A DNA stretch of 32,276 nt, from positions 1 to 32,276 of the IMG/VR virus record IMGVR_UViG_3300017714_000078; one strand, 5' to 3'. Below the pieces are notes generated by a model. That model saw nothing but the letters and a program-made list of their open reading frames with translations, ran no database searches and was not told where the DNA came from. Numbering within the stretch: the first letter of the stretch is position 1; each line of letters begins with the position of its first letter. Made by a program: the position numbers and the translations under genes. The DNA comes from a virus. Positions 1 through 32,276 of this stretch are shown here, piece by piece.

Positions 1-114
1 ACGATAAGTACTAACACAACAATAGCTACAACTGAAAATGCTATAGCAGGCGGACCTATTAATGTTGCAACAGGTGTAACGCTAACAATCAATGGAAACT
101 TTACGGTGGTATAA
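1..114 (+). CDS. C-terminal end of a tail-fibre protein (partial)
   Basis: The first 37 codons of the window are open in frame 1 and end in TAA at 112-114. The peptide ends AGGPINVATGVTLTINGNFTVV. The same pattern (AGP, a short beta strand, then TITVPSG and a final W-I-V type strand) closes the fibres at 6353-8449 and 20923-22656, so this is very probably the tip end of a third fibre of that type. The stop overlaps the next start as TAATG, which implies translational coupling to the small tip gene at 114. The rest of the gene lies outside the window, so its length and N-terminal type are unknown. Confidence 0.75.
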   Translation, partial: TISTNTTIATTENAIAGGPINVATGVTLTINGNFTVV

Positions 115-668
115 TGTCAGGAACAATAACAGTACAAAATATACAAGGACCCACAACAGGATCAAATGCCAATCAAGTTTTAATTCCTAGTGGACATTCA
201 TTACACGCACCCGGACATGTTATACAAGTCATTGACAGTGGAGCCAAGACAACCTCTGTAACAGTTCAGTCTACTACTTTTACAAATACCGATATGGTTA
301 ATGTGGCAATTACTCCTAAATTTGCAACTAGCAAAATTTATGTGATAGTAACACAGAATATTCAAGTATGGAACACTTCGGCATATGCCACAGGACGTTG
401 GAGAATTTTAAGAAATATAGCTGGTGGCAGTTATTCCGCAGTGATGGAAGATGATAGCACCGCCAATGGTAATATATTCGCATATGACTATGGTGGAAGC
501 GGAATTAATGTTTATTCTCCTATGACGTATCAATTTTTAGATAGTCCTAATACTACCAGTCAAGTCATATACAAAACGCAAATTGCCAGAGGAGCTAACG
601 GCGGAAATAGAATAGTATCTGATGGTGAAAATCCTGGGAGAATGACACTGTTGGAGATAGCACAATGA
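114..668 (+). CDS. Small tail-fibre tip protein, ITPK family
   Basis: A 184-residue protein with the layout shared by four or five small genes here. It has a short N-terminal peptide (ITVQNIQG), then APGHVIQV near residue 35, a core strand ITPKFATSKIYVIV at 66-79, a variable body, and the end MTLLEIAQ. Small proteins with an ITPK-x-SK core are common beside fibre genes in marine phages and are usually annotated as tail or structural proteins; a receptor-contacting role is inferred. The start is fixed by TAATG overlap with the fibre end upstream, and its stop overlaps the next gene by 4 bases (ATGA). No membrane segment or signal peptide is seen. Confidence 0.7.
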   Translation: MSGTITVQNIQGPTTGSNANQVLIPSGHSLHAPGHVIQVIDSGAKTTSVTVQSTTFTNTDMVNVAITPKFATSKIYVIVTQNIQVWNTSAYATGRWRILRNIAGGSYSAVMEDDSTANGNIFAYDYGGSGINVYSPMTYQFLDSPNTTSQVIYKTQIARGANGGNRIVSDGENPGRMTLLEIAQ

Positions 669-1240
669 GTACTATGCGTGTTGACAATATTACTGAAAAA
701 ACATCAGGACATGGTGTGCTTATTCCAGGTTCTATCTGTCAAGTTGTAGAACAAAAATTAAGTGGTAGAACAGTAATAAATGCCACAGGTGGGTATGGTC
801 AGAGCGTTGCTAGTGGACTAAAATGCAGTATCACACCCAAGTCAGCAAATCCAACACTTTATATCATTTGTCAGCTTCAATATACAACTGGAAACTTCAA
901 TGCTGGATATCAGTTGTATGACAATACCAACAGTCAATATGTTTTGTATAACGATCAAAGTTCGGATCCATCTAGCAATACTACTGGTAGAAAATATCTT
1001 TCCAGTGGTGGAATTGGCTCTTCTGGATTTAACAGTGATGGTAATGATTATGGTAATAGCAGTAGAACTGCCACAGGAAAATACACTCCTCCCAACAACA
1101 ACACACTAGAAATAGAAGTAAGAATGTTATATATGAATAATGTAGGAAATATATTCATCGGCGGAAATGAATCTAACGTGAACTATACATATGACAGCTA
1201 CAGTCATTGTTCACTAACACTTATGGAGATAGTAGGATGA
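665..1240 (+). CDS. Small tail-fibre tip protein, VDNIxEK/ITPK family
   Basis: A 191-residue protein beginning MSTMRVDNITEKTSGHG, with IPGSICQVV at 20-28, SITPKSANPTLYII at 55-68 and the end LTLMEIVG. The N-terminus is nearly the same as that of the gene at 23266 (MSTLYVDNLIEKSSNHG), 22 kb away, while the middles differ strongly. The middle is rich in Gly, Ser, Asn and Tyr, as in exposed beta-rich tips. ATGA overlaps at both ends put it in a coupled run of four genes. The likely role is a small virion adhesin or fibre cap; this is inferred from context and shared termini, not from a recognised binding site. Confidence 0.7.
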   Translation: MSTMRVDNITEKTSGHGVLIPGSICQVVEQKLSGRTVINATGGYGQSVASGLKCSITPKSANPTLYIICQLQYTTGNFNAGYQLYDNTNSQYVLYNDQSSDPSSNTTGRKYLSSGGIGSSGFNSDGNDYGNSSRTATGKYTPPNNNTLEIEVRMLYMNNVGNIFIGGNESNVNYTYDSYSHCSLTLMEIVG

Positions 1241-1728
1241 GCAGTGTAATGAAAGTTGACAGTATTACCAAAAGTGACGGCACAGCTGGTGTACACATTG
1301 CAGGACATGTTATACAAGTTGTAAGTGCAACATATCAAACACAAGCAACTACAACTAGTACTTCATTCGTTGATACTGGTTTAACGGCTTCTATTACACC
1401 AAAGTTTTCATCATCTAAAGTTTTTGTAACTGTTAGTCAGGCTTATTCTTTAACTCAGTCAACAGATAGTCAATGGCAGGGTAATTTAATAATAGCAGAT
1501 GGAAGTAATAATCTATTATTTGGTGGTACTGGATACGATCAATTTAGAATAAAAAATATGACAGCTTTTCATTGGCAAACAAATTTACAAGTGTTACATT
1601 CTCCTAACACTGCAAGTTCTTTTACATATAAAACTAGAATGAAAGCAATGATTAGTGGGACTAATGTTTATTCACAATATGCTGGAGTGGCTCCTTCAAG
1701 TATAACCCTTATGGAGATTGCACAATGA
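1237..1728 (+). CDS. Small tail-fibre tip protein, ITPK family
   Basis: A 163-residue protein starting MSSVMKVDSITKSDG. This start is preferred over an upstream ATG at 1207 because it makes an ATGA overlap with the previous stop and aligns with the N-termini of sibling genes. HIAGHVIQVV lies at 20-29, ASITPKFSSSKVFVTV at 51-66, and the protein ends SSITLMEIAQ. A 17-base stretch coding GHVIQV (1303-1319) is identical to bases 213-229 in the gene at 114, so these two are close paralogues at that point although their bodies differ. The stop overlaps the next fibre gene. A role as a host-contacting or tip-capping virion protein is inferred. Confidence 0.7.
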   Translation: MSSVMKVDSITKSDGTAGVHIAGHVIQVVSATYQTQATTTSTSFVDTGLTASITPKFSSSKVFVTVSQAYSLTQSTDSQWQGNLIIADGSNNLLFGGTGYDQFRIKNMTAFHWQTNLQVLHSPNTASSFTYKTRMKAMISGTNVYSQYAGVAPSSITLMEIAQ

Positions 1729-3410: not shown

Positions 3411-3414
3411 AAAA

Positions 3415-3693
3415 ATGACAAAAACAATTACAACTGAAATTAGCGATGCAATGTACAAAGCATTAGAATCAGCGGCATTAGATCCAGCAGAATGGGCCAA
3501 GAGTGCTATTGAATTAAGATGCAGAGTAGAATACGACGAGATTTATAGAAGCACTGTTGATAGATACTTAGAAGAAGGAATAACAGTTCCTAGTTCTAAA
3601 GATGAAATAGTAATGGATGCCTTTACAAGAGGTTGGGCTAAAACAGTTGCTCAACGCAATGCTGAATTTGACGATGAGTTAGCTAAAAAATAA
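3415..3693 (+). CDS. Small alpha-helical fibre-accessory protein (92 aa)
   Basis: The start at 3415 (MTKTITTEIS) is chosen because an upstream in-frame ATG at 3340 lies inside the preceding fibre gene and because the 92-aa length then equals that of its paralogue at 12145. Shared pattern: short beta start, then a helix with (E/D)W-x3-A-x4-R-x-R-x3-DEI (here AEWAKSAIELRCRVEYDEI), and an acidic C-terminal helix rich in Ala and Gln. Both copies directly follow a fibre with a C1q-like tip and directly precede a late promoter. No enzymatic motif is visible. A role in folding or attaching the upstream fibre is inferred only from position; I do not recognise a named family. Confidence 0.65.
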   Translation: MTKTITTEISDAMYKALESAALDPAEWAKSAIELRCRVEYDEIYRSTVDRYLEEGITVPSSKDEIVMDAFTRGWAKTVAQRNAEFDDELAKK

Positions 3694-3700
3694 CTAAATA
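3693..3700 (+). promoter_or_regulatory. T4-type late promoter box (ACTAAATA)
   Basis: The octamer overlaps the stop codon of the gene before it and sits 23 bases before the ATG at 3724. It is followed by TGTATAAC and a ribosome site GTAAGG, then TATACATATG, the leader repeated before other cassettes. It differs from TATAAATA at the first two positions, so it may be weaker than its sisters. Confidence 0.6.
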
Positions 3701-3723
3701 TGTATAACAAGTAAGGTATACAT

Positions 3724-5433
3724 ATGTCAACTCTCAAAATAGAACATATTGCTAATATTGCAAACAGCGGTCCAGACATCAGCATTGATACCAGTGGTCA
3801 TCTAAACATTGTAAACGGAAGTTTACAAATGGGTGGTACCACCATGTTGGATACCAGTGATACAACTCTAAAAAATGTAAGTAAAATTGGTATCGGAACT
3901 GCTAGTCCTGGTTACAAGTTACATCTGCATGAAAATTCAAGTAGCGAATCCTATCAATTATTTACGAATAGTACTACTGGAGCAACAACAAGTGACGGAT
4001 TCCGTATAGGTATTGATAGTAATGAAAATGCTTTAATATGGCATAGAGAAGCAAAAATTATTCAATTTGCTACAAGTAATGATATAAAAATGGTTATTTT
4101 AGCCAATGGCAACGTTGGTATTGGCACAACGAGCCCTCAACAAATTTTACATATACATAACTCAAGTGGAAACTTTAGTGCTGAAGCAGTACTCACAGGT
4201 AGATTATCTACAGGAACTCCTAAGGCAGAAGTAGCATTTAAAAGAGGCACATCTGGTGATGGAGCTATGCTTGTGTTACGATCTTCAAACAGTAGCGGTG
4301 CCTTAATAGATGCTGTTACCATAAAAGATGGAACTGGTAATGTTGGTATTGGAACAAATAACCCGCATGGCAATTTGCATATACATGGCGATAACACTAG
4401 AACAATATTTGGACCAGTAACTGCTAACCTTGCGGCACAACACAGATTAGAATTTTGGGAAAGTGCACCAACTAACTCTACAGACGCAAACTACGCAATA
4501 GAATATGATGGCACTACTACATATGGTGGTGATGGTGCGTTTCTATTCAGAGGATATGGCAGCGCCGCTAACCAAGTATTTGGTGGTATTAACAGACAAG
4601 GCACAGCATTCTTTGGTATGAACGGAGCATCACCAAGAGTAGGTATTGGTACAACGACTCCTAATGCTAAATTACATGTCTTCGAAAATGATTCGACAGC
4701 GTTTAGTCCAAGTAGTAGCACATGGCATAACATTGTAGTCAGTAATGAAAACACCAGTGGTACTGCTAGGACAGCAGGTATAGCCTTTGAACTCAATGGA
4801 TATCATGCAAATGCAGGAACTGGCATCGCCGCAGTAAAAAATGGTACTGCTAGTGATTATGGTGCTGATCTTGCCTTTATTACTAGACCACAAAGTCTCG
4901 TTGCTGAAGAACGCATGAGGATTGATTCGGCAGGCAATGTACTATTTGGTTGTGTTGCTCAACCATCAGGCAGTACTGGTGGTTCAGGATTTATGAACTC
5001 TACCCATGGTCGCAGAAATCTTTGGTTAGCACTAACTTCAACTGCTGATAATTCTCTTGTAATTTTTGCAAATCCTAACGGCATTGTAGGGCAAATTAGA
5101 TGTAGCGGATCAGTTACAAATTACATTACTACATCAGACAGACGATTGAAAGAAAATATCATACCAATACAAGATGCTTCACAAAAAATATTGGCTATGA
5201 ATCCAGTATCCCATACTTGGATAAATGATAAAACTGCACCTGAACAACATGGTTTTATTGCACAAGAAATGCAGTCTATTGTTCCAGAAGCTGTAAGCGG
5301 AGATGCTAACAGTGAAGAAATGATGGGAATGGATTATGGTAAAATTACACCTGTAATTGTTAAATCACTACAAGATGCGTTGAACGAAATATCCAGTTTG
5401 AAACAACGTATAAGTGAGTTGGAGAAAAATTAA
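3724..5433 (+). CDS. Tail fibre with S74 self-cleaving intramolecular chaperone
   Basis: A 569-residue fibre that opens a cassette. Four VGIGT-x-x-P-x3-L-H repeats fill the body (near residues 56, 131, 207 and 307), consistent with a trimeric beta shaft. From residue 471 the sequence TSDRRLKENI begins a Peptidase_S74 domain, followed by HGFIAQEMQSIVPEAV and a terminal heptad helix (ISSLKQRISELEKN). In this family the domain trimerises, folds the shaft and is then released by self-cleavage before the serine. The expected pair, Ser471 and Lys476 (five residues apart), is present, so the mature fibre should be about 470 residues. Its stop overlaps the next gene as TAATG. Confidence 0.88.
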   Translation: MSTLKIEHIANIANSGPDISIDTSGHLNIVNGSLQMGGTTMLDTSDTTLKNVSKIGIGTASPGYKLHLHENSSSESYQLFTNSTTGATTSDGFRIGIDSNENALIWHREAKIIQFATSNDIKMVILANGNVGIGTTSPQQILHIHNSSGNFSAEAVLTGRLSTGTPKAEVAFKRGTSGDGAMLVLRSSNSSGALIDAVTIKDGTGNVGIGTNNPHGNLHIHGDNTRTIFGPVTANLAAQHRLEFWESAPTNSTDANYAIEYDGTTTYGGDGAFLFRGYGSAANQVFGGINRQGTAFFGMNGASPRVGIGTTTPNAKLHVFENDSTAFSPSSSTWHNIVVSNENTSGTARTAGIAFELNGYHANAGTGIAAVKNGTASDYGADLAFITRPQSLVAEERMRIDSAGNVLFGCVAQPSGSTGGSGFMNSTHGRRNLWLALTSTADNSLVIFANPNGIVGQIRCSGSVTNYITTSDRRLKENIIPIQDASQKILAMNPVSHTWINDKTAPEQHGFIAQEMQSIVPEAVSGDANSEEMMGMDYGKITPVIVKSLQDALNEISSLKQRISELEKN

Positions 5434-5966
5434 TGGCACAATATTATCCTCAAAATAGTACTACTAATAAGTTAACAGGTGAAATATGGAGTGAAGGCTC
5501 TAATACATACAGTGGTGATGGTGGCGATAATGAAATACAAATACCATCATCTGGATATGCATATGCATTTGTACACATTAGATTCAGTGGAAGCGGTGTA
5601 GGAACAAATAGTTATACACAATTTCATAATAGTTCAGACAGTCACTTATCAATGGAATATAGCATGAGATACCACAGACAAGATGGTGGTAATAATTATT
5701 ATGTAGGGAATAGCACTTGGCAAAAGTTTGCTGACGGTCAAGATTGTAGTGTAGGTTGGACAGGGAGATGGTGGATACCAATAGGAAACTACGACAGAGT
5801 ACAGTTTAATGGTATTATTTCTTGGACATATAACGGCGTTGGCATAGCAGAGACACATGGATCATGGCAAAGACAAGGAAATGATAACATAGGTAAAGTA
5901 GGTGTTAATATTGATGGTAGTGGTACGGTCACTGGTATGCAGTGGAGAGTCATAGGATATAGATAA
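5433..5966 (+). CDS. Small Trp-rich virion protein, possible fibre tip
   Basis: A 177-residue protein starting MAQYYPQNSTTNKLTGEIW. I do not recognise the family. It is rich in Trp, Tyr, Gly and Asn (WTGRWWIPIGNYDRV around residues 109-123, THGSWQRQGN later), ends in a beta strand (MQWRVIGYR), and lacks signal peptide, membrane segment or coiled coil. Aromatic-rich beta proteins of this size next to fibres often bind glycans; that role is a guess here. It starts within the stop of the S74 fibre (TAATG) and its own stop overlaps the chaperone-like gene at 5966 in the same way, so the three genes should be made together. Confidence 0.6.
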   Translation: MAQYYPQNSTTNKLTGEIWSEGSNTYSGDGGDNEIQIPSSGYAYAFVHIRFSGSGVGTNSYTQFHNSSDSHLSMEYSMRYHRQDGGNNYYVGNSTWQKFADGQDCSVGWTGRWWIPIGNYDRVQFNGIISWTYNGVGIAETHGSWQRQGNDNIGKVGVNIDGSGTVTGMQWRVIGYR

Positions 5967-6319
5967 TGAAAGTAACAAGACAAAATGATAGATATATCGC
6001 TGACGCAATACGCTCAGTTGTAGGAGATCCAACTGCTGATGTAGCCTACTCACATAATTCACAAGACGAATTAGAAATCCAAATTCCCAGTGGAGTAGAT
6101 ATTAATCTAGTTGAAGCAGAAATGACAAATGCTAAAACTAACTATGATCTTGCTGAATTGCGTGAAGAAAGAGATAGATTAATATCAAAAACAGACTGGT
6201 GGGTATTGCCAGATAGAACACCAACTGATGCACAAAAAAACTACAGACAAGCACTAAGAGATATTACGAACACATATACATCACTAGAAGATGTAGTATG
6301 GCCCACACCTCCAAGTTAA
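5966..6319 (+). CDS. Phage tail assembly chaperone-like protein
   Basis: A 117-residue protein. The C-terminal half carries the Phage_tail_APC-type signature: LREERDRLISKTDWW at 65-79, then NYRQALRDITN at 92-102 and VVWPTPPS at the end. Two other genes here (20521 and 24343) share this half and differ in the N-terminal half, so the C-terminal part is likely the fibre- or tail-facing common domain and the N-terminal part the specific one. It ends its cassette, directly before a late promoter. The family name rests on motif recognition; which fibre it assists is inferred from position (the S74 fibre or the 177-aa protein). Confidence 0.75.
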   Translation: MKVTRQNDRYIADAIRSVVGDPTADVAYSHNSQDELEIQIPSGVDINLVEAEMTNAKTNYDLAELREERDRLISKTDWWVLPDRTPTDAQKNYRQALRDITNTYTSLEDVVWPTPPS

Positions 6320-6320
6320 A

Positions 6321-6328
6321 CATAAATA
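6321..6328 (+). promoter_or_regulatory. T4-type late promoter box (CATAAATA)
   Basis: It lies one base after the stop of the chaperone-like gene and 24 bases before the ATG at 6353. The flank TGTATAGCAGATAAAGG and the CATATG at the start codon match the repeated leader. In T4-type systems transcription starts a few bases after this box, which would leave a leader of under 20 bases. Confidence 0.7.
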
Positions 6329-6352
6329 TGTATAGCAGATAAAGGCATACAT

Positions 6353-8449
6353 ATGAGCAAAGCATTAGAACTTTCACAACTAGCAAATGATATAACATAT
6401 ACCGAAGGAACTGATACACTCAGCTTTGGTCAAGCCAATATTACAATTGGAAGTAATGCACTTTTATCTTACAATACATTTAGCGGTGACTTAACAGTTG
6501 CTAGTAACGGTGCAGTAACTCTTGCTACAGTAAACAGTAACGTTGGAAGTTTTGGTAGTGGCTCAGCTATACCAGTTGTAACTGTAAACGCAAAAGGTTT
6601 GGTTACTGCGGTTAGTACACAAGCAGTAAACATTGTTAGCACTACAGACATTGCTGGTGATAGTGGTACGGACACTATTACACTAGGCACCGATACGCTT
6701 ACTTTTGCAGGTGGCACTGGCTTAACTAGTGCAGTCACAAACAACAACGTAAGCATAGCATTAGATAATACGGCAGTTAGTGCAGGTAGCTATGGTGGTT
6801 CAACAGCAATACCAGTTATTACTGTAGATGCACAAGGTAGAATTACTAGTGCAAGTACAAGTTCAATCAACACAGATTTAGTAAGTGATACAACTCCACA
6901 ACTGGGCGGAACACTTGATGCCAATGGTAATACTATTGACATGGGCACAAACATACTTACTGATACAAATCTTGGACAGTTTATTACAGCGTATGGCTGG
7001 GGAAATCATGCAAGTGCTGGATACCTAACCAGTATTTCAGCAGACAGTATTAACGATACACATATAGATTTCGGAACAGGTTCTAATCAAGTTAGTACAG
7101 CAGACATTCCAGAACAAACAAATTTATACTATACTGATGCTAGAGCTGATGCAAGAATTACAAATGCACTAGGCGGTAATGTAACCATTACAGGCAATCT
7201 TACTGTAAATGGCACAACAACAAGTGTTAACTCAAATGAAGTAAACATTGGCGATAACATTATCAAACTCAACAGTGACGAAACAGGTACGCCAAGTCAA
7301 AATGCTGGTATTGAAATTGAACGTGGCACAAGCACTAATGTTGCTTTTAGATGGAATGAAACAAGTGATGTTTGGCAATTTACAAATGATGGAACAACAT
7401 ATAACAATTTAGGTACAGCAGATATTGTAAATGATACCACACCTCAACTTGGTGGAGATTTACAATCTAACGGCAACGATGTTAAGTTCGCAGACAATGA
7501 CAAAGCTATTTTTGGTACTGGTGCTGATATGGAAATATATCATAACACTACTAACAGTATTATTCAAACTACTAACACTCATAGTTTTAAACTTATGGGT
7601 GGAAGTAACAACTATATTGTAGCTACCCCTGCTAACGCAGTAACTTTATACCATAATGGTTCACCAAAAATAGCTACATCCTCTACAGGTGTTACAGTAA
7701 CTGGCACAGTAGCCGCCACAGCTTTTACAGGCGATGGTAGTGCATTAACTGGTCTTAGCACTGATTATACTGTGAGTGCAAACTATGCGTATAGACAAAT
7801 TACAGATGGAACAAATCTAGCAGTAGCTGGCAGTAATATAGATACATTTACTGTAACTGGTGGAACAGATATCAGTGCAGTAGTAACTCCTGCAAGTGAT
7901 ACACTTACACTTACAAACACCAGTACGCTTGATAGTGTGACTACCAGAGGTGCAACAACAAACACAAGTATACTATTTCCAGATAATGTAAAAGCACGTT
8001 TTGGTGATGCAAGTTCACCAGACATGGAAATATATCATGACGGTTTAAACAGCTATATAGATGACACAGGTACAGGCAGTATTTTTATACGCAGTGGTAC
8101 AACTTATATACAAAATGCCGCAGGTAATAAAACTGCTTTTGCAACAAACAGTGGTGCAGAACAAACACTTTATCACAACAACAATCCTAAGTTTGCTACG
8201 TCAGCTACGGGTATTGCAGTAACAGGTGATGTAGATGTAAGCACAGGACACATTGTCAGAGGCACACAACATTTTGATGGCGGTGCAACTGGTGGTGCAG
8301 GTGATATGGCATTTTTAGAAACTGACAATACAGTGAACAATAATTATTCAATAAGTAGTAATAGAAATGCAATGACTGTAGGACCAGTAACAGTAGCAAG
8401 TGGTGCTACAATTACAGTACCTAGCGGACAAAGATGGATTATAATGTAA
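6353..8449 (+). CDS. Tail fibre, cassette-opening, with AGP-type C-terminus
   Basis: A 698-residue fibre with an N-terminus (MSKALELSQLANDITY) of the kind that opens many marine phage fibres. In order it shows two GSxGxxxAIPVxTVxAxGxxTxxS repeats (about residues 62-85 and 143-166), TTPQLGG at about 182, an NLYYTDARADARI motif at 256-268, a LTVNGTTTSVNSNE block, and two EIYH modules in the second half. It ends AMTVGPVTVASGATITVPSG, the closing motif also seen at 1-114 and 20923-22656. No VGIGT repeat is present, which sets it apart from most siblings. One spare base separates its stop from the next fibre start. Shaft function is inferred. Confidence 0.8.
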   Translation: MSKALELSQLANDITYTEGTDTLSFGQANITIGSNALLSYNTFSGDLTVASNGAVTLATVNSNVGSFGSGSAIPVVTVNAKGLVTAVSTQAVNIVSTTDIAGDSGTDTITLGTDTLTFAGGTGLTSAVTNNNVSIALDNTAVSAGSYGGSTAIPVITVDAQGRITSASTSSINTDLVSDTTPQLGGTLDANGNTIDMGTNILTDTNLGQFITAYGWGNHASAGYLTSISADSINDTHIDFGTGSNQVSTADIPEQTNLYYTDARADARITNALGGNVTITGNLTVNGTTTSVNSNEVNIGDNIIKLNSDETGTPSQNAGIEIERGTSTNVAFRWNETSDVWQFTNDGTTYNNLGTADIVNDTTPQLGGDLQSNGNDVKFADNDKAIFGTGADMEIYHNTTNSIIQTTNTHSFKLMGGSNNYIVATPANAVTLYHNGSPKIATSSTGVTVTGTVAATAFTGDGSALTGLSTDYTVSANYAYRQITDGTNLAVAGSNIDTFTVTGGTDISAVVTPASDTLTLTNTSTLDSVTTRGATTNTSILFPDNVKARFGDASSPDMEIYHDGLNSYIDDTGTGSIFIRSGTTYIQNAAGNKTAFATNSGAEQTLYHNNNPKFATSATGIAVTGDVDVSTGHIVRGTQHFDGGATGGAGDMAFLETDNTVNNNYSISSNRNAMTVGPVTVASGATITVPSGQRWIIM

Positions 8450-12433: not shown

Positions 12434-12441
12434 CATAAATA
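12434..12441 (+). promoter_or_regulatory. T4-type late promoter box (CATAAATA)
   Basis: It lies 25 bases before the ATG at 12467 and is flanked by TTTAAA upstream and TGTATAATAGATAGGATAC downstream, matching the leader repeat. The gene start is CATTTATG here instead of CATATG. Confidence 0.7.
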
Positions 12442-12466
12442 TGTATAATAGATAGGATACACATTT

Positions 12467-24753: not shown

Positions 24754-24757
24754 TTAG

Positions 24758-24765: not shown

Positions 24766-24788
24766 TGTATAGCAGATAGGATATACAT

Positions 24789-27700
24789 ATGGCTCTCAGT
24801 AAAAATTTCGAACTTGGTAACTTTGCTAGTGGTTTGGATGTAAACAATAGCACAGGTGCTATTACAAATATAAATCTCAACACTGATGGAATTTCTGAAG
24901 GTTCAAATTTATATTACACCGATGCAAGAGTTAATACTTTTGCAGGTGGTGGAAGCCTTGCAACTATAACTACATCAGGCGATGTTACTGTAGGTGGTAA
25001 TTTAATTGTAAATGGTAGTACAACTACAATTAACAGTACAACATTAGATGTTGATGATATCAATATTACAGTAGCAAAAGGAGCCGCATCTGCGGCGGCG
25101 GCAAATGGTGCCGGACTTACTGTAGATGGCGCTAACGCTACATTTACATATGTAAGTGCTAGTGATACATTTGCAATGAATAAATCTTTGGCTACTAATC
25201 TAGTAGGAAATGTTACAGGAACAGTAAGTGATATAAGCAATCATCTACTAGATGAAGATAACTTTGCAACAGACAGTGCAACTAAAGTACCGAGCCAGCA
25301 AAGTGTTAAAGCATATATAGCAAGCCAACTATCAACACAAGACAATACAGATGAACTTACTGAAGGTTCTACAAATTTATTTTTTACCAATGAGAGAGTA
25401 GATGACAGAGTAAATGCATTAATTGTTGGTGGCAGTAATATTACAGCAACCTATGATGATGCCGCCGGCACACTTACTATTGCCGGAGCGGCAGGATATA
25501 CCACCAGTAGTTTCAATACAGACTTGGCGGCAAAAACTACAGACAACATAACAGAAGGCAGTAGTAATCTATATTATACTAACACAAGAGCAGACGCAAG
25601 AATAGCGGCGGCTAGTATTGGTGCATTATCAGATGTTAATACTTCAGGCGCGGCAAATGGCAAAATATTAAAATACAATGGTAGTGCTTGGGTAATAGCA
25701 GATGATGCTGGTGGTCCTACAGATACAGATGGATTAAGCGAAGGTTCTAGTAACTTGTATTATACAACTGCTAGAGCAAACAGTGCTATAGATGCTAGAG
25801 TCAACGCTAGCTTTATTAATAATTTAACTATTGTTGCTGATACTGCAACTACACTTGCGAATGCAAGAACAATATCAGGGGTAGCATTTGATGGAAGTCA
25901 AAATATTACACTTAACACAAGTGGTATTACAGAAAACACAAATTTATATTATACTGATGCTAGAGTTCAAACATATTTAGGCGGCGGCAGTACAACAAAT
26001 ATAGTTACCAGTGGAAATATTACAGTTGGCGGAAACCTGACAGTAAATGGTACAACCACTACAATTAGTACAACCAATACAGTAGTTGAAGATGCTTTGA
26101 TAGAACTGGGCACAGGAACTTCCGGTACACCTGCAAATGACAGTGGTATTGTAATTGAACGAGGCAGTGAAGCCAATGCATTTATAGGATTTGATGAAAG
26201 TGCAGATAAATTTATTGTTGGTACTGGAACATTTACCGGAGCAAGTACAGGTAATTTAACAATTACAACTGGTACTTTATTAGCAAATGTCGAAGGAAAT
26301 GTAACTGGAAACGTTACAGGAACAGTGAGTAGTTTAAGTAATCTTACTTCAGATAACCTCAGTGAAGGTTCAAGTAACTTATATTATACAACCGCAAGAC
26401 ACAACAGTGACTTTGATACAAGATTAGGAACCAAAGACACAGGATCACTCAGTGAAGGAAGTAATTTATACTATACTGATGCTAGAGTAAAAGCAAGTAC
26501 ACTGACCGCAGGTAGTTTAAGAGGTAGTGTAAACAATGCCACAGTACAATACGGAACCAGTTATACAGGTACTCCAGCACAAGGTAGTTTCTTCTTTGAC
26601 AGTTTAAATTCAAAATTAAAAGTATACACAGGCAGTGCATTTGTAGACGCTGTACCAGCCGGAGGCGGTGGTGGTGGTGGCGGAGCCAGTGATGCTAATA
26701 CTACTTTTAGAAATCATACCTATGATATTGCTAGTACTACCAATGCTTTGAGTGGTAAAGATAGTATTACAGTAACAGCAGGTGCTTTTGTAATAGGTTA
26801 CAAATATGAAATTATAAGTGCAGGTAACACCAGCTTTACAGGTATTGGTTCAGCAGACAATAACGTAGGAACACAGTTTACAGCAACCGGAGTAGGTACT
26901 GGTACTGGTACAGCAGGACATGTACTAAATTACACCACAACAGGTAATCAAAATATAGTTGTATTTAGAAATGGTGTTAAGCAAGTAGAAGGCTCGAGTG
27001 ATGACTATGTTGCAACTAGCGGAACAAGTATAAACTTTACTTACAATTTACTAAGTGGTGATGTAATTGATGTACAAATATATGAACTGCTCACAAACAG
27101 TGCTTACTATTTAAAAACTGAAACATATACACAAGCACAAGTCAATAGCCAAATATCTACAGGCGTAAGTTCATATCTGCCACTTGCTGGTGGCACACTA
27201 ACTGGCGATGTGTCACATGGTGATAATGTCAAAGCCAAATTTGGCGGTGGTTCTGATTTAGAGATTTATTATGATGGTACAGACGGATATATTAGAAATC
27301 ATGTAGGTGGAAGAATTATACAAAGAGCAAGGACTGGATTTTTATTTCAAACTAATGCAACAAACGGTGGTGCAGATAATGCAATTCGAGCAGTACAAAA
27401 CGGAGCCATTGAGCTATATTGGGATAATGATAAAAAGTTAGAAACAACTACCAATGGTATTGATGTTATAGGTGTAGGTTCAAACTTCAAAAGTGCTAGT
27501 TACAATATTCTAAACTTACAAACTGACACTGATGATAATGGTTCAAGTGATGATGGCATTTTCAAAATTACAAATGGCAGTTCAGGCACAACCAAAGCAG
27601 AGTTTAGATGGGACGAAAGCGAAGATACTGTACAAATTGCCTATGGAGATCATGGTAGAAATATTGTTATAAAATCAAATGGTAATGTTGGTATTAATGC

Positions 27701-29309
27701 AAGTACTCCACAATGTGGACTAAACATTTTTGGAGAGAGTACAAGTAACTGGGCTGATAGTGATTCTATGTATGGTAAAGATCATCCAGCATTTCTTAAG
27801 ATTACAAATGGACAAAACACTGTAGGTGTTGAGTCTGGTATAGTAATGAGATCAAAAACTGCTGGTGCAGGCGTTTGGTCTATGTATGCAAAACAGACTG
27901 CTAACTATCTTGCTGATCTTCATTTTAGAGGAAGAAATGCTGGTACAACAAGTGCAGTTAGAATGACATTAAAATCAGACGGCAATGTTGGTATTGGTAC
28001 AACTGCTCCTAGCTCTCCCCTGCATGTAAGAAAAGTGGGAAACCCGAGTGGTGGAAATAGAAACACAGTAGAAACTGTATTAACCTTAGACGCAACGGGA
28101 CATTACCCATATGGTGGTTATGGTGTTGGTATAGATTTTAAAGGCGAAGATTACGGAAATACTGCCATTCGAGAATATGCAAAAATCGAAGCAGTGATGG
28201 TAGGACATGCTAATCAGACTGCGGCAGGCGACCCTGCGTTTACAAGTGCGTTAACTTTTGCAACAAACAGTGGAGGAGCTTCTAGCACATTAGTAACTGA
28301 AAAGATGAGGATTGATGCGTCAGGCAACGTGGGTATTGGTATCACTCCCACTGATTATTTAACTGCTGGCTATAATTTACGTTTATACGGTGGAACACAG
28401 ACTTATCTAGCTTTCAATAATAGCACACATACAACACAAGTATTAGGTGGTTTTGTTATAGGAAATGATGGAGGTGCGGCAAGGATTACTCAGCGTGAAA
28501 ATCAACCATTAATTTTTGCTACTAACGACACCACTGCTATTACTATAGATGCAAGCCAAAAAGTTGGTATTGGAACAACTCCTAATTTTACATTCCATTC
28601 GGTTGGTACCGCACGACTACAAGGCAGTATGAATAATACTCATGGTCAGTTGAGTATTTACGGTACAAGTGCTGGTGATGCTCAAATCGCCTTTGTTACT
28701 GATGCTAATGGACGTGGAATTTATGTTGATAACAATGATACCAACAAAATGAAGTTTTACACTGGTTATGGTAAAGGTGTAGCTGGTAGAGAAATTACTC
28801 TGGACAATACTGGTAGCATGTACATAGGTAAAACATCATATACTGTAGCATCAGCAGGAGTAATACTTGATCAAAATGGAACCACTTACTACACTAAATC
28901 AACTGGCAACACATTGCATTTGCACGATACTGCTAACTATAAATTCTATGTAAATGCCAATGGCGGTATATACAACTATCAAAGTAATAACGTTAACCTT
29001 TCAGATGAGCGTGAAAAGAAAAATATAGAAAACATGTCTTCGCAATGGGAAACATTAAAAAAATGGAAACTAAAAAGATTTCATTTTAACAAAGACGAAG
29101 ATAGCGATGATAAAAAATACGGAGTTATTGCTCAAGATGTAGAATCTCATAACCCAGAAGTTGTAACTGATTTTAAAAGTACTGATGAAGAAACAAGATT
29201 GGCTGTAAAAGAACAACAAATGACGTGGATAGCTATAAAGGCATTGCAAGAAGCAATGGAAAAAATAGAAACATTAGAAGCTAGAATAACAGCATTAGAG
29301 TCTGCATAG
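24789..29309 (+). CDS. Very long tail fibre with S74 self-cleaving chaperone
   Basis: A 1506-residue fibre, the largest in the window and alone in its cassette. The first 600 residues hold seven EGSxNLYYTxAR-type repeats and two LTVNGTTT/IVNGSTTTINST blocks. A run of eight glycines near residue 625 forms a flexible hinge. Next comes a beta module (KYEIISAGNTSFTGIGSADN, later VVFRNGVKQVEG), a LPLAGGTLTGDVSHG link, one DLEIYYDG module and four VGI repeats (one altered to VGINASTP). The Peptidase_S74 domain starts at Ser1405 (LSDEREKKNI) with Lys1410 five residues on, then YGVIAQDVESHNPEVV and a coiled-coil end. Self-cleavage should leave about 1404 residues. Candidate main long fibre. Confidence 0.88.
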   Translation: MALSKNFELGNFASGLDVNNSTGAITNINLNTDGISEGSNLYYTDARVNTFAGGGSLATITTSGDVTVGGNLIVNGSTTTINSTTLDVDDINITVAKGAASAAAANGAGLTVDGANATFTYVSASDTFAMNKSLATNLVGNVTGTVSDISNHLLDEDNFATDSATKVPSQQSVKAYIASQLSTQDNTDELTEGSTNLFFTNERVDDRVNALIVGGSNITATYDDAAGTLTIAGAAGYTTSSFNTDLAAKTTDNITEGSSNLYYTNTRADARIAAASIGALSDVNTSGAANGKILKYNGSAWVIADDAGGPTDTDGLSEGSSNLYYTTARANSAIDARVNASFINNLTIVADTATTLANARTISGVAFDGSQNITLNTSGITENTNLYYTDARVQTYLGGGSTTNIVTSGNITVGGNLTVNGTTTTISTTNTVVEDALIELGTGTSGTPANDSGIVIERGSEANAFIGFDESADKFIVGTGTFTGASTGNLTITTGTLLANVEGNVTGNVTGTVSSLSNLTSDNLSEGSSNLYYTTARHNSDFDTRLGTKDTGSLSEGSNLYYTDARVKASTLTAGSLRGSVNNATVQYGTSYTGTPAQGSFFFDSLNSKLKVYTGSAFVDAVPAGGGGGGGGASDANTTFRNHTYDIASTTNALSGKDSITVTAGAFVIGYKYEIISAGNTSFTGIGSADNNVGTQFTATGVGTGTGTAGHVLNYTTTGNQNIVVFRNGVKQVEGSSDDYVATSGTSINFTYNLLSGDVIDVQIYELLTNSAYYLKTETYTQAQVNSQISTGVSSYLPLAGGTLTGDVSHGDNVKAKFGGGSDLEIYYDGTDGYIRNHVGGRIIQRARTGFLFQTNATNGGADNAIRAVQNGAIELYWDNDKKLETTTNGIDVIGVGSNFKSASYNILNLQTDTDDNGSSDDGIFKITNGSSGTTKAEFRWDESEDTVQIAYGDHGRNIVIKSNGNVGINASTPQCGLNIFGESTSNWADSDSMYGKDHPAFLKITNGQNTVGVESGIVMRSKTAGAGVWSMYAKQTANYLADLHFRGRNAGTTSAVRMTLKSDGNVGIGTTAPSSPLHVRKVGNPSGGNRNTVETVLTLDATGHYPYGGYGVGIDFKGEDYGNTAIREYAKIEAVMVGHANQTAAGDPAFTSALTFATNSGGASSTLVTEKMRIDASGNVGIGITPTDYLTAGYNLRLYGGTQTYLAFNNSTHTTQVLGGFVIGNDGGAARITQRENQPLIFATNDTTAITIDASQKVGIGTTPNFTFHSVGTARLQGSMNNTHGQLSIYGTSAGDAQIAFVTDANGRGIYVDNNDTNKMKFYTGYGKGVAGREITLDNTGSMYIGKTSYTVASAGVILDQNGTTYYTKSTGNTLHLHDTANYKFYVNANGGIYNYQSNNVNLSDEREKKNIENMSSQWETLKKWKLKRFHFNKDEDSDDKKYGVIAQDVESHNPEVVTDFKSTDEETRLAVKEQQMTWIAIKALQEAMEKIETLEARITALESA

Positions 29310-29314: not shown

Positions 29315-29322
29315 CATAAATA
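29315..29322 (+). promoter_or_regulatory. T4-type late promoter box (CATAAATA)
   Basis: It lies 23 bases before the ATG at 29346, after TAGATAAA. The downstream leader TGTATAGCAGATAGGATATACATATG equals that at 24766, and even the first two codons of the two genes agree (ATGGCT). Confidence 0.72.
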
Positions 29323-29345
29323 TGTATAGCAGATAGGATATACAT

Positions 29346-32174
29346 ATGGCTCTTAATTTCCCAGCAAGTCCCGTAAATGGTCAAGTTTATGTAGCCTTGG
29401 GCCGTGGCTGGAAGTATAACAGTTCAGCAGGTATATGGGAAGCAAATATCAATGTTAATACAGTATTTGACAGTGATGATATTAGTGAAGGCACAGCAAA
29501 TCTTTTTACAACACAAGAAAGAACAGATGATTTTGTAAGTAATTTGATTACTGCTGGCAATAATATTACAGTTAATTACAATGATGTTGCTAATAGTTTA
29601 ACAATTGCAAGTACTACACCTACAACTATTTCTGGTAATGCTGGTACAGCTACAGCATTGCAAACAGCTAGAAATTTTAGTGCAACAGGTGATGCAACTG
29701 CACCAGCTGTAAGTTTTGATGGTACAGCCAATGTAGCACTTAATCTGACACTTGCAAACAGCGGAGTGAGTGCAGGAAGTTTTGGTAGTGGTAGTGCTAT
29801 ACCAGTAATCACAGTAGATTCAAAAGGACGCATAACCAGTGCTAGTACTCAAAGCGTAAACATTGTTACCACTACAGATATAGCAGGAGATAGTGGTACT
29901 GACACAATTACATTAGGAACTGATACCCTTACTTTTGCTGGAACAACCAGCGAGATAGAAACAGCAGTTACAAACAATCAAGTACAAATAGGTTTGCCCA
30001 ATGATGTAACAATTGGCAACAACCTTACAGTAACCGGTACACTTACCGTAAATGGAACAACCACCACTATAAATAGTACCCAATTAGACGTAGATGACCT
30101 TAATATCACTATAGCTAGTGGTGCTGGTAATGCCGCCGCGGCAAATGGCGCAGGTATCACAGTTGATGGTGCAAGTGCAACCTTAACATATACCAGTTCA
30201 AATGATAGATGGAACTTCAATAAAGAATTAGTTGTTGCAAGAGTACACGGAAATCTTACAGGAAATGTAACTGGGCAAGTCAGTGATATTAGTAATTTTT
30301 CAACAACTAACATTACAGAAGGTTCGAATTTATATTACACTGATGCTAGAGCAGATGCTCGTGCAACTTTACGTATTACAGCCGCAAGTATAGGAAATTT
30401 ATCAGATGTTGACATAACTACTTCTGCTCCAACAAATGGGCAAGTACTTATTTGGAATTCATCTAACAGTGAGTTTGAACCTGGAACAATAACTGGTTAT
30501 GCAACAAGTGATTTTAATACAGATTTTGCAAGTAAAGATACAGATGATCTAAGTGAAGGATCTACAAATTTATACTTTACAGATGCTAGAGCAAGAAGTG
30601 CAATCAGTGAAAATAGCACACAACTAGCATACAATAGCTCTACAGGCGTATTAACTTTTACACAAGGCAACACTGATACAGTAGCAGAAGGTTCAAGTAA
30701 TTTATATTTTACAAATGCAAGAGCTGATGCACGTATTGCCGCGGCAAGCATTGATGCATTGTCAGATGTAGATATAACAACTTCAGCACCTACAAATGGA
30801 CAAGCACTTATTTGGAATGCTAGTAATAGTGAATTTGAACCCGGCACAGTTGGTAGTACACTAACAGTGCAAGATGAAGGTTCTGCACTATCAACTAGTG
30901 CATCTATACTAAACTTTGTTGGTGCAGGTGTTACTGCAAGCGGAACAGGTGCAACAAAAACAATTACAATTGCTAGCAGTGTATCTGCTATTAGTGATTT
31001 AAGTGATGTAGATGCAAGTGGTGTTGCTAATGGAGAAATACTCAAGTATGTGAGTGCCAGCAGTGAGTTTCAGCCTAGCTTAATTACAAACAGTATGTTG
31101 GATCCAACCAATGTGTTTGCAGATCAATTTACTGCAAATGGCAGTACAGCGGCATTTACATTAAGCAGTGATCCTGGTAGTAAAAATGCAGTGCAAGTTT
31201 TTGTAGATGGTGTTCCACAAAAAGCAAGCGGATATACAGTAAGTGGAACAACATTAACATTAGGAGGTACACCTACTAATGGACAAATAGTTGAAGTAAG
31301 AGGATATGGAGTAGGACTACCAGTTGGAACAGTAGCAGATAACAGCATTACAGGTGCTAAACTACAAAACGGTACAATTGGTCTAAACAAAATACAAGCT
31401 GGTGATTACTACAATGCTGATACATTTACAGCAGGATCAAATCAAACTGCTTACACATTGACAACTGATCCAGGATCACCATACGCTATAACAGTTTACG
31501 TTGCAAATGTACAACAAAAACCAGTTACAAATTATACAGTGAGTGGAACAACACTAACACTTTCGGCGGCGCCAACACAAGGTGTGGAAGTATATGTACG
31601 TTATTATGGAGTTGCACTTGCCGTTGGTACTGTAGCAGATTCAAGTATCACTGGTGCAAAACTACAAGATGGCACAATAACCATTGACAAAATTGCGGCA
31701 GGAGCATATACTAAACAAACATTTACAGGTGACAACACAACCACAGCATTTACATTAAGCACAGACCCTGGTGTAGCACAAGCACTATTGATAATGGTAG
31801 ACAATGTTGTACAAGAACCTACTGAAAACTACACAACTAGTGGAACAACACTAACATTCACTAGTGCTCCAGCACTTAATGCTAGAATATATGTTCGCTT
31901 TCTTGGATTGCCGTATGCAAATGCTAGTGTTCCAGCTGATGACAGTGTTACAAATGTAAAACTTAATTTAACATACACTAGTAATCAATACACAGGAAAT
32001 AATTCAGCTACAGCATATACAATTCCAGCAGGGCATACAGCTAATAGCGTATTAGTAATATTAGATGGACTAATATTGCCTCCAAGTGATTACAGTGTAA
32101 GTGGCACTACATTAACATTTGGTAGTGCTCCACTGCTTAATCAAAGTATAGATATAAGGTACATGCCGGTATGA
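29346..32174 (+). CDS. Tail fibre with four tandem C-terminal beta modules
   Basis: A 942-residue fibre starting MALNFPASPVNGQVYVALGRGWKYN, a known marine phage fibre start with a Trp-containing small domain. The middle holds a GSFGSGSAIPVITVDSKG repeat, a LTVNGTTTTINST block, four EGxxNLYxTxAR repeats and two LSDVDITTSAPTNGQ segments. From about residue 590 to the end lie four copies of a 90-100 residue module (centred near 591, 694, 793 and 882), each with FTLSxDPG or a variant, VxVxVDxVxQ, a YTVSGTTLT strand and an IYVR-type strand; linkers of the type VADSSITGAKLQDGTI join them. VGIGT repeats are absent. The stop overlaps the next gene by ATGA. Confidence 0.82.
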   Translation: MALNFPASPVNGQVYVALGRGWKYNSSAGIWEANINVNTVFDSDDISEGTANLFTTQERTDDFVSNLITAGNNITVNYNDVANSLTIASTTPTTISGNAGTATALQTARNFSATGDATAPAVSFDGTANVALNLTLANSGVSAGSFGSGSAIPVITVDSKGRITSASTQSVNIVTTTDIAGDSGTDTITLGTDTLTFAGTTSEIETAVTNNQVQIGLPNDVTIGNNLTVTGTLTVNGTTTTINSTQLDVDDLNITIASGAGNAAAANGAGITVDGASATLTYTSSNDRWNFNKELVVARVHGNLTGNVTGQVSDISNFSTTNITEGSNLYYTDARADARATLRITAASIGNLSDVDITTSAPTNGQVLIWNSSNSEFEPGTITGYATSDFNTDFASKDTDDLSEGSTNLYFTDARARSAISENSTQLAYNSSTGVLTFTQGNTDTVAEGSSNLYFTNARADARIAAASIDALSDVDITTSAPTNGQALIWNASNSEFEPGTVGSTLTVQDEGSALSTSASILNFVGAGVTASGTGATKTITIASSVSAISDLSDVDASGVANGEILKYVSASSEFQPSLITNSMLDPTNVFADQFTANGSTAAFTLSSDPGSKNAVQVFVDGVPQKASGYTVSGTTLTLGGTPTNGQIVEVRGYGVGLPVGTVADNSITGAKLQNGTIGLNKIQAGDYYNADTFTAGSNQTAYTLTTDPGSPYAITVYVANVQQKPVTNYTVSGTTLTLSAAPTQGVEVYVRYYGVALAVGTVADSSITGAKLQDGTITIDKIAAGAYTKQTFTGDNTTTAFTLSTDPGVAQALLIMVDNVVQEPTENYTTSGTTLTFTSAPALNARIYVRFLGLPYANASVPADDSVTNVKLNLTYTSNQYTGNNSATAYTIPAGHTANSVLVILDGLILPPSDYSVSGTTLTFGSAPLLNQSIDIRYMPV
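31116..32171 (+). repeat. Four tandem copies of a ~95-codon beta module
   Basis: The copies begin near 31116, 31425, 31722 and 31989. Each encodes T-A-Y/F-T-L, then a V-x-V strand, then Y-T/S-x-SGTTLT and an I/V-x-V/I-R strand. Bases for SGTTLT are close to identical between copies (AGTGGAACAACA...). A diverged single copy sits at the N-termini of the fibres at 12467 and 20923. Confidence 0.7.
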
Positions 32175-32276
32175 GTAGAGTAAGAGACTTAGCAGACAAT
32201 AATATTGTATTTGTAGATGGTATTACCACAGCAGATATAAGTGAAGGTGCAAATTTATTCTTCACCAACACAAGAG
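32171..32276 (+). CDS. Start of another tail-fibre gene (partial)
   Basis: The last 106 bases are open from an ATG that overlaps the stop of the previous fibre as ATGA. The peptide MSRVRDLADNNIVFVDGITTADISEGANLFFTNTR joins an N-terminus like those at 6353 and 15519 (MS-x-A/V-R-x-L) to an EGxNLFFTNTR motif, so the fibre array continues past the window. Its length and tip are unknown. Confidence 0.75.
   Translation, partial: MSRVRDLADNNIVFVDGITTADISEGANLFFTNTR

What the first reader, a model, noticed from the sequence alone, without database searches (positions are those of the whole stretch)
1..32276. A 32-kb uninterrupted library of tail-fibre genes in promoter-led cassettes
Eleven fibre genes of roughly 560-1500 residues (plus one partial at each edge), five small tip genes and seven accessory genes follow each other on one strand with no other gene type. 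T4 and most marine relatives carry a few fibre genes. Here the units repeat a plan: late promoter, large fibre, optional extra fibre or tip genes, small accessory protein, next promoter. A phage with so many distinct tips could carry several adhesins on one particle, or different virions could carry different sets. The array runs beyond both ends, so its full size is unknown.
Basis: partly seen in the sequence, partly recalled or inferred. Interest (0 to 1): 0.75.

Follow-up and report, generated by a model that had tools for sequence, protein, structure and literature searches.

The report
Phage array of interchangeable tail fibres
An uncultured, probably marine virus of bacteria carries a stretch of at least 40,000 DNA letters made only of tail-fibre parts, apparently a set of about fifteen mounting points onto which different host-gripping tips, each with its own assembly helper, are swapped between related viruses.

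Summary
All 25 complete genes are on one strand (98.9% covered): 11 large fibres, 7 small fibre/tip genes (not 5) and 7 accessory genes; 7 of the 11 fibres follow an extended late-promoter box. A second contig (967 identical bases of overlap) carries the array to its right end, about 40.4 kb from the window's start. Two more contigs match the window (99.98-100%) and two match the extension (99.75-99.89%), so an artefact is unlikely for the right part.

Relatives explain the design. The 14 complete fibres all have different N-termini; 13 of these types recur, once each, in relatives B and/or G002. C-terminal tips move between N-types together with the downstream accessory gene (similarity correlation 0.82; N-terminus versus tip 0.09). 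Cassette order is permuted; the 3 of 13 neighbour pairs kept between the window phage and B all lack a box between them. Two modelled parts resemble a CBA120 TSP4/T4 gp10-like docking domain and a C1q head. PA5oct, a cultured relative, has one fibre at this locus.

Best reading: a branched, multi-adhesin tail with about 15 docking addresses and plug-in tip-plus-chaperone units. Co-display on one virion is inferred. New variant of a known kind (RaK2/phiK64-1/phiKp24-like).

The parts
1..113 (+). 3' end of a fibre gene, N-type z by position and DNA match
   Evidence: window 1-179 is 94.4% identical to L008 (G001) 10237-10415, the end of a z-type fibre followed by a small gene
114..668 (+). small fibre/tip gene 1 (184 aa)
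   Evidence: phrog_6942 tail fiber, E 2e-11; 69% identical to G001:10350 over 39 aa, the N-termini being alike by eye
665..1240 (+). small fibre/tip gene 2 (191 aa)
   Evidence: 82% identical to L036:4617-5237
1237..1728 (+). small fibre/tip gene 3 (163 aa)
   Evidence: 59% identical to G001:11491 over 64 aa
1725..3410 (+). fibre, N-type a (561 aa), tip class T2
   Evidence: phrog_9942, phrog_18345, phrog_15750; tip shared with G002 l, G008 i, L051 and L036 fibres
3415..3693 (+). accessory gene (92 aa), partner of T2 tip
   Evidence: 92% identical to L051:3113 after the same tip; also after that tip in G002, G008, L036
3695..3723 (+). extended late-promoter box
   Evidence: TAAATATGTATA 29 nt before the start
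3724..5433 (+). fibre, N-type b (569 aa), tip class T3 ending in Peptidase_S74 chaperone domain
   Evidence: PF13884 E 2.4e-16; tip shared with G002 f and G024 f
5433..5966 (+). small fibre/tip gene (177 aa)
   Evidence: position; no PHROG match
5966..6319 (+). accessory gene, Phage_tail_APC, partner of T3 tip
   Evidence: PF16778 E 1.5e-13
6323..6352 (+). extended late-promoter box
   Evidence: 30 nt before the start
6353..8449 (+). fibre, N-type c (698 aa), conserved C-terminus
   Evidence: last 200 aa 95% identical to G024 c
8451..10331 (+). fibre, N-type d (626 aa), C1q-like tip
   Evidence: model of residues 477-626, pLDDT 79.9; best Foldseek hits are C1q domains
10348..12111 (+). fibre, N-type e (587 aa), tip of the same family as d
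   Evidence: phrog_15750; phmmer E 7.5e-11 to the d tip
12145..12423 (+). accessory gene (92 aa) closing the c-d-e cassette
   Evidence: 88% identical to G024:115045
12436..12466 (+). extended late-promoter box
   Evidence: 31 nt before the start
12467..15247 (+). fibre, N-type f (926 aa), N-terminal TSP4/gp10-like docking domain, tip class T5
   Evidence: model of residues 1-110; tip 51% identical to G024 d tip over 116 aa
15249..15467 (+). accessory gene (72 aa), partner of T5 tip
   Evidence: 77% identical to G024:124044 over 65 aa
15490..15518 (+). extended late-promoter box
   Evidence: 29 nt before the start
15519..17681 (+). fibre, N-type g (720 aa)
   Evidence: N-type recurs in G002:4476 and G024:117442
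17678..17869 (+). accessory gene (63 aa)
   Evidence: position; no PHROG match
17870..20500 (+). fibre, N-type h (876 aa), tip class T1
   Evidence: tip 81% identical to the tip of G002 g
20521..20892 (+). accessory gene, Phage_tail_APC, partner of T1 tip
   Evidence: 85% identical to G002:6852; PF16778
20896..20922 (+). extended late-promoter box
   Evidence: 27 nt before the start
20923..22656 (+). fibre, N-type i (577 aa), N-terminal docking domain of the f family
   Evidence: alignment A2 and HMM
22658..23269 (+). small fibre/tip gene (203 aa)
   Evidence: 70% identical to L036:4156 over 27 aa
23266..23754 (+). small fibre/tip gene (162 aa)
   Evidence: 40% identical to G002:9219
23751..24317 (+). 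small fibre/tip gene (188 aa)
   Evidence: 75% identical to G001:2088 over 24 aa (scored with the upstream start 23721)
24343..24753 (+). accessory gene, Phage_tail_APC, closing the i cassette
   Evidence: 85-89% identical in G001, G002 and L036
24760..24788 (+). extended late-promoter box
   Evidence: 29 nt before the start
24789..29309 (+). largest fibre, N-type j (1506 aa), docking-like domain at 697-766, Peptidase_S74 end
29317..29345 (+). extended late-promoter box
   Evidence: 29 nt before the start
29346..32174 (+). candidate hub, N-type k (942 aa); C-terminus of tandem docking-like domains instead of a variable tip
   Evidence: last 200 aa 95-97% identical in G001 and G002, 59% over 150 aa in G008; repeats match the f/i N-termini, hhalign probability 95.9%, HMM matches weak (best domain E 0.002)
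32171..32276 (+). 5' end of fibre N-type l, continued in contig G003 (L010:862-3330)
   Evidence: 967-base exact overlap with L010

Best explanation
The window is the left and middle part of one virion-gene array of an uncultured, probably marine, T4-type phage related to PA5oct. It encodes a branched, multi-adhesin tail apparatus. Each large fibre has a different N-terminal segment that serves as its docking address, either on the baseplate or on hub fibres carrying TSP4/gp10-like domains (k, j, x, z). Each variable C-terminal tip is a host-binding head that folds with the small accessory protein encoded just after it, or with a built-in S74 domain. Promoter-led cassettes give late expression. 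Related phages exchange tip-plus-accessory units between addresses and reorder whole cassettes, while keeping about one copy of each address. Shown by sequence: array, distinct N-types, tip-accessory linkage, permutation, box. Supported by models: docking domain and C1q head. Inferred: docking role, chaperone role, simultaneous display on one virion, host-range function, marine origin.
For: 14 of 14 complete N-termini in the window plus its extension are distinct; 13 of the 14 types (all but n) recur, once each, in B and/or G002. 35 fibre+accessory cassettes, 490 between-phage pairs: tip-accessory similarity r 0.82, N-accessory 0.16, N-tip 0.09; 21 of 22 tip-similar pairs also have similar accessories, and 18 of the 22 have unlike N-termini; of 32 pairs with the same N-type 4 have similar tips and 7 similar accessories. 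0 of 5000 within-phage shuffles of accessories reach the tip-accessory value. Order permuted; of 13 neighbour pairs comparable with B, 3 are kept, all without a box between them. f N-terminal model: CBA120 TSP4 Z 9.6, T4 baseplate chain 5iv5_AC Z 7.8. k C-terminal repeats match it. C1q tip: Foldseek E 5.5e-9 to about 1e-8 for the best two hits. Other contigs match the array. Core TAAATA also lies before portal and tail-sheath genes of relatives, and the whole 12-base box before a structural-looking gene in five other contigs.
Against: No virion proteomics or image exists for this phage. N-type uniqueness shows distinct sequences, not proven docking sites; in contig L053 two fibres both score best, weakly, to type m (74 and 118). 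Only the f/i N-terminal domain was modelled (mean pLDDT 70), and its match list also holds phage neck and portal-complex domains at Z 8.0-8.3; other N-types are untested. Most similarity breaks lie away from boxes: 23 of 301 left ends and 22 of 307 right ends are at a box. The box is not array-specific: in 13 further loci that carry it, none of the ORFs found behind it matches an array gene. Tips of k and c, and partly i, are conserved, so not every fibre varies. No lyase or depolymerase domain was recognised in the proteins scanned; one match to a PHROG named hyaluronidase covers only the S74 end of fibre b. Six more distant relatives carry no box at the same locus, and 3-5 of the 7-18 large ORFs there match the array fibres.
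Confidence: 0.7

Rival explanations
1. The cassettes are alternatives: only a subset is expressed or assembled in a given infection, so different virions carry different adhesin sets.
For: Separate promoter-like boxes for most cassettes would allow separate control; f and i N-termini share a domain family, so limited competition for a site is possible.
Against: The boxes are near-identical and point the same way, giving no sign of differential control. No RVT_1, Resolvase or Phage_integrase match in 6 contigs of this group, which are fragments. All 25 genes are intact.
Confidence: 0.15
2. The array is mainly a reservoir of tips for recombination, with only a few cassettes functional at a time.
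For: Tip-plus-accessory units move between anchors and cassette order changes.
Against: No decayed cassette in the window; N-types recur across relatives, which suggests selection on each.
Confidence: 0.07
3. The fibres decorate other virion parts (tail sheath whiskers, capsid fibres) rather than forming the adsorption organelle at the baseplate.
For: Some jumbo phages carry capsid fibres or hair-like tail appendages (PMC13282480, passages).
Against: TSP4/gp10-like docking domains fit baseplate-linked branched fibres; the position between head and tail genes does not discriminate.
Confidence: 0.06
4. Assembly artefact that fused fibre genes of several related phages.
For: Modules repeat within the array, a known cause of mis-joins; the searches made gave no near-identical contig for window 1-20044. 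The window's own sample is not told, so a matching contig may share it.
Against: L033 (8280 b, 99.98%) and L034 (4886 b, 100%) span junctions of window 20045-28324; L010 overlaps the right end exactly; L094 and L100 match the extension. These five contigs bear four sample numbers. Relative B shows the same architecture with permuted cassettes.
Confidence: 0.02

Closest known systems
Branched receptor-binding systems of Klebsiella jumbo phages RaK2/phiK64-1 and phiKp24
   Same: Many fibre/spike genes, distinct N-terminal parts, gp10-like docking domains on hub proteins; phiKp24 has fourteen putative fibres (PMC9700779, passages), RaK2 at least ten structural proteins (PMC10253068, passages)
   Different: RaK2's annotated cluster ORF526-534 is about 21 kb, 9 genes on two strands; here at least 40 kb on one strand with accessory genes and repeated promoter boxes. 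The phiKp24 fibres are putative depolymerases; here C1q-like and other heads, with no lyase recognised
CBA120 tailspike complex (TSP1-4)
   Same: f/i N-terminal domain model resembles TSP4 residues about 170-256
   Different: Four spikes only (PMC10253068, passages); match is by fold, with low sequence identity
PA5oct (Wroclawvirus, Arenbergviridae)
   Same: Same locus: portal, protease, major head protein (68% identity) on one side, NUDIX and sheath-like genes convergent on the other
   Different: 6.3 kb with one annotated fibre gene between major head gene and the convergent genes there; a 57.8-kb interval in relative B, fibres and other virion genes together
Tail fibre plus cognate chaperone modules of Alteromonas phages A5/V22
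   Same: Fibre and chaperone shared as a module between distantly related phages (PMC10579305, abstract and outline)
   Different: There one host-recognition module is described; here many stand in a row, with tips moving between different N-termini
Methylophilales phage Melnitz (Kyanoviridae)
   Same: About 20 kb of fibre and hypothetical genes with tail-assembly chaperones; related APC proteins
   Different: No extended box before the 30 starts printed; mostly smaller genes

Membership tests
Branched multi-RBP tail system (CBA120/phiK64-1/phiKp24 type) | Several receptor-binding proteins encoded together | tested here: met
   11 complete fibres in the window and 3 more in the extension
Branched multi-RBP tail system (CBA120/phiK64-1/phiKp24 type) | Conserved, mutually distinct N-terminal anchor or docking segments | tested here: met
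   14 of 14 distinct, 13 recurring in B and/or G002
Branched multi-RBP tail system (CBA120/phiK64-1/phiKp24 type) | T4 gp10-like docking domains in hub proteins | tested here: met
   fold match to TSP4 (Z 9.6) and a T4 baseplate chain (Z 7.8; that it is gp10 is recalled); related repeats in k, single copies in j and z, two in x of B; phrog_677 in k (E 7e-6) and in B's j (E 5e-16). Model confidence is moderate and the HMM matches in k are weak
Branched multi-RBP tail system (CBA120/phiK64-1/phiKp24 type) | Polysaccharide-degrading tip domains (typical of the Klebsiella members) | tested here: inconclusive
   none recognised among PHROG matches of 25 window proteins (a hyaluronidase-named match covers only an S74 end) or Pfam matches of 10 of the 25
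Branched multi-RBP tail system (CBA120/phiK64-1/phiKp24 type) | Proteins present together on the virion | not testable with these tools
   no isolate
T4-type late promoter | TATAAATA-like element before late genes (motif recalled) | tested here: met
   core TAAATA before portal, sheath and fibre genes of relatives; 12-base box before array genes at 25 of 25 sites in six contigs and before a structural-looking 389-aa gene in five other contigs. Activity not tested
Invertible or diversity-generating fibre systems | Site-specific recombinase or reverse transcriptase with the array | tested here: not met
   no RVT_1, Resolvase or Phage_integrase match in 6 contigs, which are fragments of the genomes
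PA5oct-like phages (Wroclawvirus/Arenbergviridae) | Shared core genes and gene order around this locus | tested here: met
   tblastn synteny and 68% major head protein identity for relative B; terminase 55%. For the window phage itself only the right flank (G003) is held
PA5oct-like phages (Wroclawvirus/Arenbergviridae) | Formal genus/family membership by whole-genome similarity | not tested
   no complete genome; no nucleotide match of window 1-25000 in the phage collection

The most novel reading that the evidence does not exclude
A plug-in adhesin system: a fixed set of about 15 docking addresses, each a conserved N-terminus, onto which tip-plus-chaperone units are exchanged between addresses and between phages, with near-identical late-promoter boxes acting as both start signals and recombination joints that let whole cassettes change order while the address set is kept complete. 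One virion would then display a combinatorial set of about 15 adhesins.
Probability: 0.4. Interest if true: 0.72.

Novelty: new variant of a known kind. Interest (0 to 1): 0.6.

Why it matters
It turns a vague question (how does a phage carry many adhesins and change them quickly?) into a testable rule: address at the N-terminus, specificity at the tip, and a helper inherited with the tip. The arrays give natural anchor/tip/helper combinations from several phages, which could guide prediction of host range from metagenomes and show which helper belongs to which tip. It also marks the interval between the major head gene and the NUDIX/sheath-like genes in PA5oct-like phages as an expandable virion locus (6.3 kb in PA5oct, 21 to 53 kb in the six relatives where I fetched both flanks).

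Tried and rejected
Exact search of the first 47 bases of the window in viral contigs found no contig. Protein searches from the left part (N-types a and f) gave relatives but no near-identical contig. phmmer of k and j against PDB sequences gave nothing. A small tip gene had no match in the phage collection. DNA search of window 1-25000 against phages gave nothing. tRNA scans of the window and seven flanking loci were empty. Considered and set aside: DGR, invertase or shufflon mechanisms, and artefact.

I first thought the extended box specific to the array. Of 21 further loci scanned for N-types, 4 gave a match at score 60 or more.

Wider use of the cassettes: of 18 head-protein loci in 17 records, 8 records have a sheath-like match; I fetched six intervals with both flanks (21-53 kb). 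They carry no box, and 3-5 of their 7-18 large ORFs match the array fibres. Ten proteins of one interval were scanned, 6 with a named tail-fibre or baseplate match; the rest I only read by eye. So the cassette plan is not general for the group. Vibrio phage 2.275.O has tail-collar, short-fibre and hypothetical genes after its capsid gene, with no comparable run of annotated fibres; the stretch of Atu_ph07 that I read holds its sheath but showed no head locus.

The first tip/anchor statistics used a wrong N-terminus for one split gene; one search corrects it. The 35 cassettes in that test were chosen by hand: those with an accessory gene in the same cassette; fibres without one directly behind them (for example c, d, j, k, l of the window phage) were left out, and 2 of the 35 have no N-terminus on their contig. 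Cut-offs (normalised BLOSUM62 score): tip 0.35, accessory 0.45, N 0.40; other tip cut-offs gave like results. The one tip-similar pair without a similar accessory is B f and window b. Six pairs with similar accessories but unlike tips and N-termini belong to one accessory family. For the literature I searched the library and saw no description of such permuting cassettes in the listings; subscription papers and preprints are not held.

Full report
WHAT IS THERE. The window is an entire virus record of 32,276 bases. Twenty-five complete ORFs, all on the + strand and all free of internal stops, cover 98.9% of it together with the two edge fragments. Eleven are large fibres (561-1506 aa), seven are small fibre or tip genes of 162-203 aa, and seven are short accessory genes. 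Ten of the 11 large proteins match a PHROG tail or structural family at E 0.01 or better; 20923 matches only one of unknown function. Three accessories match Phage_tail_APC (PF16778) and two fibres end in Peptidase_S74. Nine of the 14 small proteins have no PHROG match; their class rests on position and on relatives.

PROMOTERS. TATAAATA as such is not enriched. A longer box, majority sequence AACATAAATATGTATAnCAnATAAGGTnTACATATG over 25 copies, is: its 12-base core occurs 7 times in the window, always on + and 27-31 nt before a fibre start; with one mismatch allowed there are 8 matches against 0.99 expected, none of 100 shuffles reaching 8. In six contigs of the group, 25 of 25 copies sit before array genes, while the bare TAAATA also lies before portal, sheath and other structural genes. 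The box is not confined to arrays: in 13 other loci none of the ORFs found behind it matches an array gene, and five stand before the same 389-aa protein, which by eye resembles the structural gene beside the sheath-like gene. Seven of the 11 complete fibres have the box; the others follow a neighbouring gene.

SIZE AND REALITY. Contig G003 overlaps the last 967 bases exactly and continues with three fibres and two accessories, then a convergent NUDIX gene and sheath-like gene and, further on, the tail sheath. The array therefore ends about 40.4 kb from the window's start. Other contigs match window 20045-28324 (99.98%) and 20095-24980 (100%), and two more match the extension (99.89% and 99.75%). 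These five contigs bear four sample numbers; the window's own sample is not told. The left 20 kb has no near-identical contig in the searches made.

RELATIVES. G024 (124.7 kb) ends inside an i-type fibre, and its last 77 bases are the first 77 of G001 from the same sample; I treat them as one phage, B. Because fibre modules repeat, this join is likely but not proven. B's array is about 46.7 kb from its x-type fibre on. Its flanks match PA5oct in the same order (major head protein 68%, portal 53%, protease 53%, NUDIX 40%, sheath-like 36%), where PA5oct has one annotated fibre, marked ESI-MS/MS in its record, between the major head gene and the convergent NUDIX side. Sheath, terminase and major head proteins all point to PA5oct-like or other jumbo phages and, for the head protein, to Vibrio phage 2.275.O. 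One head-protein relative lies on a 335-kb contig, which fits a jumbo genome; the genome size of the window phage is unknown. Marine origin is inferred from relatives, several binned in MAGs with marine titles.

ADDRESSES. The N-termini of all 14 complete fibres of the window phage differ. Compared over the first 50 residues, 13 of the 14 types (all but n) recur in B and/or G002, once in each; B carries 15 types plus x and w, G002 eight plus one fibre whose start is off the contig. In L053 two fibres both score best, weakly, to m. Within the four phages with the most cassettes, the highest N-terminal similarity score is 0.38 and the highest tip score 0.09.

TIPS AND HELPERS. I compared 35 fibre-plus-accessory cassettes from seven phages or contigs (490 between-phage pairs). 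Tip similarity tracks accessory similarity (r 0.82), while the N-terminus tracks neither the accessory (0.16) nor the tip (0.09). Of 22 tip-similar pairs, 21 have similar accessories and 18 have unlike N-termini; of 32 pairs with the same N-type, 4 have similar tips and 7 similar accessories. Shuffling accessories within phages 5000 times never reached the observed tip-accessory value (21 joint pairs observed, at most 12 in shuffles, same tip and accessory data). Examples: the window's h tip and its accessory recur on a g-type anchor in G002 (81% and 85%), the b tip on f anchors in G002 and B (82-83%, accessories 67% and 65% over part), the f tip on a d anchor in B (51%, accessory 77%). Pairs are not independent; by eye they fall into seven tip classes.

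ORDER. Window phage: z a b c d e f g h i j k l m n. B: x w y h b f m e g c d i k l z a j. G002: e g i k l b f m. In these orders all fibres stay on one strand. Of 13 neighbour pairs comparable between the window phage and B, 3 are kept (z-a, c-d, k-l), and all 3 lack a box between them (3 of 5 boxless, 0 of 8 boxed; Fisher p about 0.035 by my own arithmetic). B and G002 also share boxed neighbours, so the rule is not absolute. Ends of DNA similarity fall at boxes more often than expected (23 of 301 against a mean of 1.8, largest 12; 22 of 307 against 2.4, largest 14; 2000 shifts), but most breaks lie elsewhere.

STRUCTURE. The f-type N-terminal domain (13-sequence alignment, mean pLDDT 70, block means 81-91 over residues 11-70) matches CBA120 TSP4 residues 176-250 (Z 9.6, rmsd 3.4, 69 aligned) and T4 baseplate chain 5iv5_AC (Z 7.8; that this chain is gp10 is recalled); the list also holds T7-type fibre N-termini and phage neck or portal-complex domains, so a common tail fold is part of the signal. 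Related domains occur as tandem repeats at the C-terminus of k (hhalign 95.9%; HMM matches weak) and once or twice in j, z and x. Since k keeps a 95-97% identical C-terminus in G001 and G002 and has no accessory directly behind it, it is the best hub candidate. The d tip models as a C1q-like head (pLDDT 79.9; C1QL3 TM 0.76/0.86).

INTERPRETATION. The simplest account is a branched adsorption apparatus with about 15 different mounting points and exchangeable heads, as described for RaK2, phiK64-1 and phiKp24 (PMC9700779, PMC10253068 and PMC6872550, passages seen) but longer and built from promoter-led, single-strand cassettes. Exchange of a receptor-binding part with its chaperone is known in other phages (PMC10579305, abstract; PMC6872550, passages). 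What looks new is the scale, the N-type set kept across relatives, and the permutation of whole cassettes. Co-display, docking and chaperone roles remain inferred.

Noticed in passing
G046/L226-L228 and G051/L229-L231, interval after the major head gene: Proteins whose N-termini look like flavin-dependent (tryptophan-halogenase-like) enzymes (recalled resemblance, no search) lie among virion genes in two relatives; carbamoyltransferase-like proteins in G040 and G055 likewise.
   Followed up: no
L046:3484-9982 (G001): Phage B has a block of phrog_1417, 1409, 1604, 1458, 7084 and 14035 proteins between array and NUDIX gene; the window phage goes straight from array to NUDIX.
   Followed up: partly
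G008, reverse-complement coordinates 1284-13349: A predicted 4021-aa protein on the opposite strand left of the head genes; Atu_ph07 has a comparable giant virion structural protein.
   Followed up: no
window 114-1728 and 22658-24317: Two triplets of small genes with short conserved stretches (24-39 aa in three of them) and divergent bodies: the address-plus-variable-body plan may hold for small genes too.
   Followed up: partly
L236 (G054:C3): A contig binned in a Gammaproteobacteria MAG (isolate MED685) has a head protein 92% identical to phage B's and starts an x, w, y-like fibre series before the fetched stretch ends.
   Followed up: partly
L096, L098, L104, L105, L108: The same extended box, in a variant ending TAGGAGAA, stands before a 389-aa structural-looking gene in five short contigs.
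   Followed up: partly
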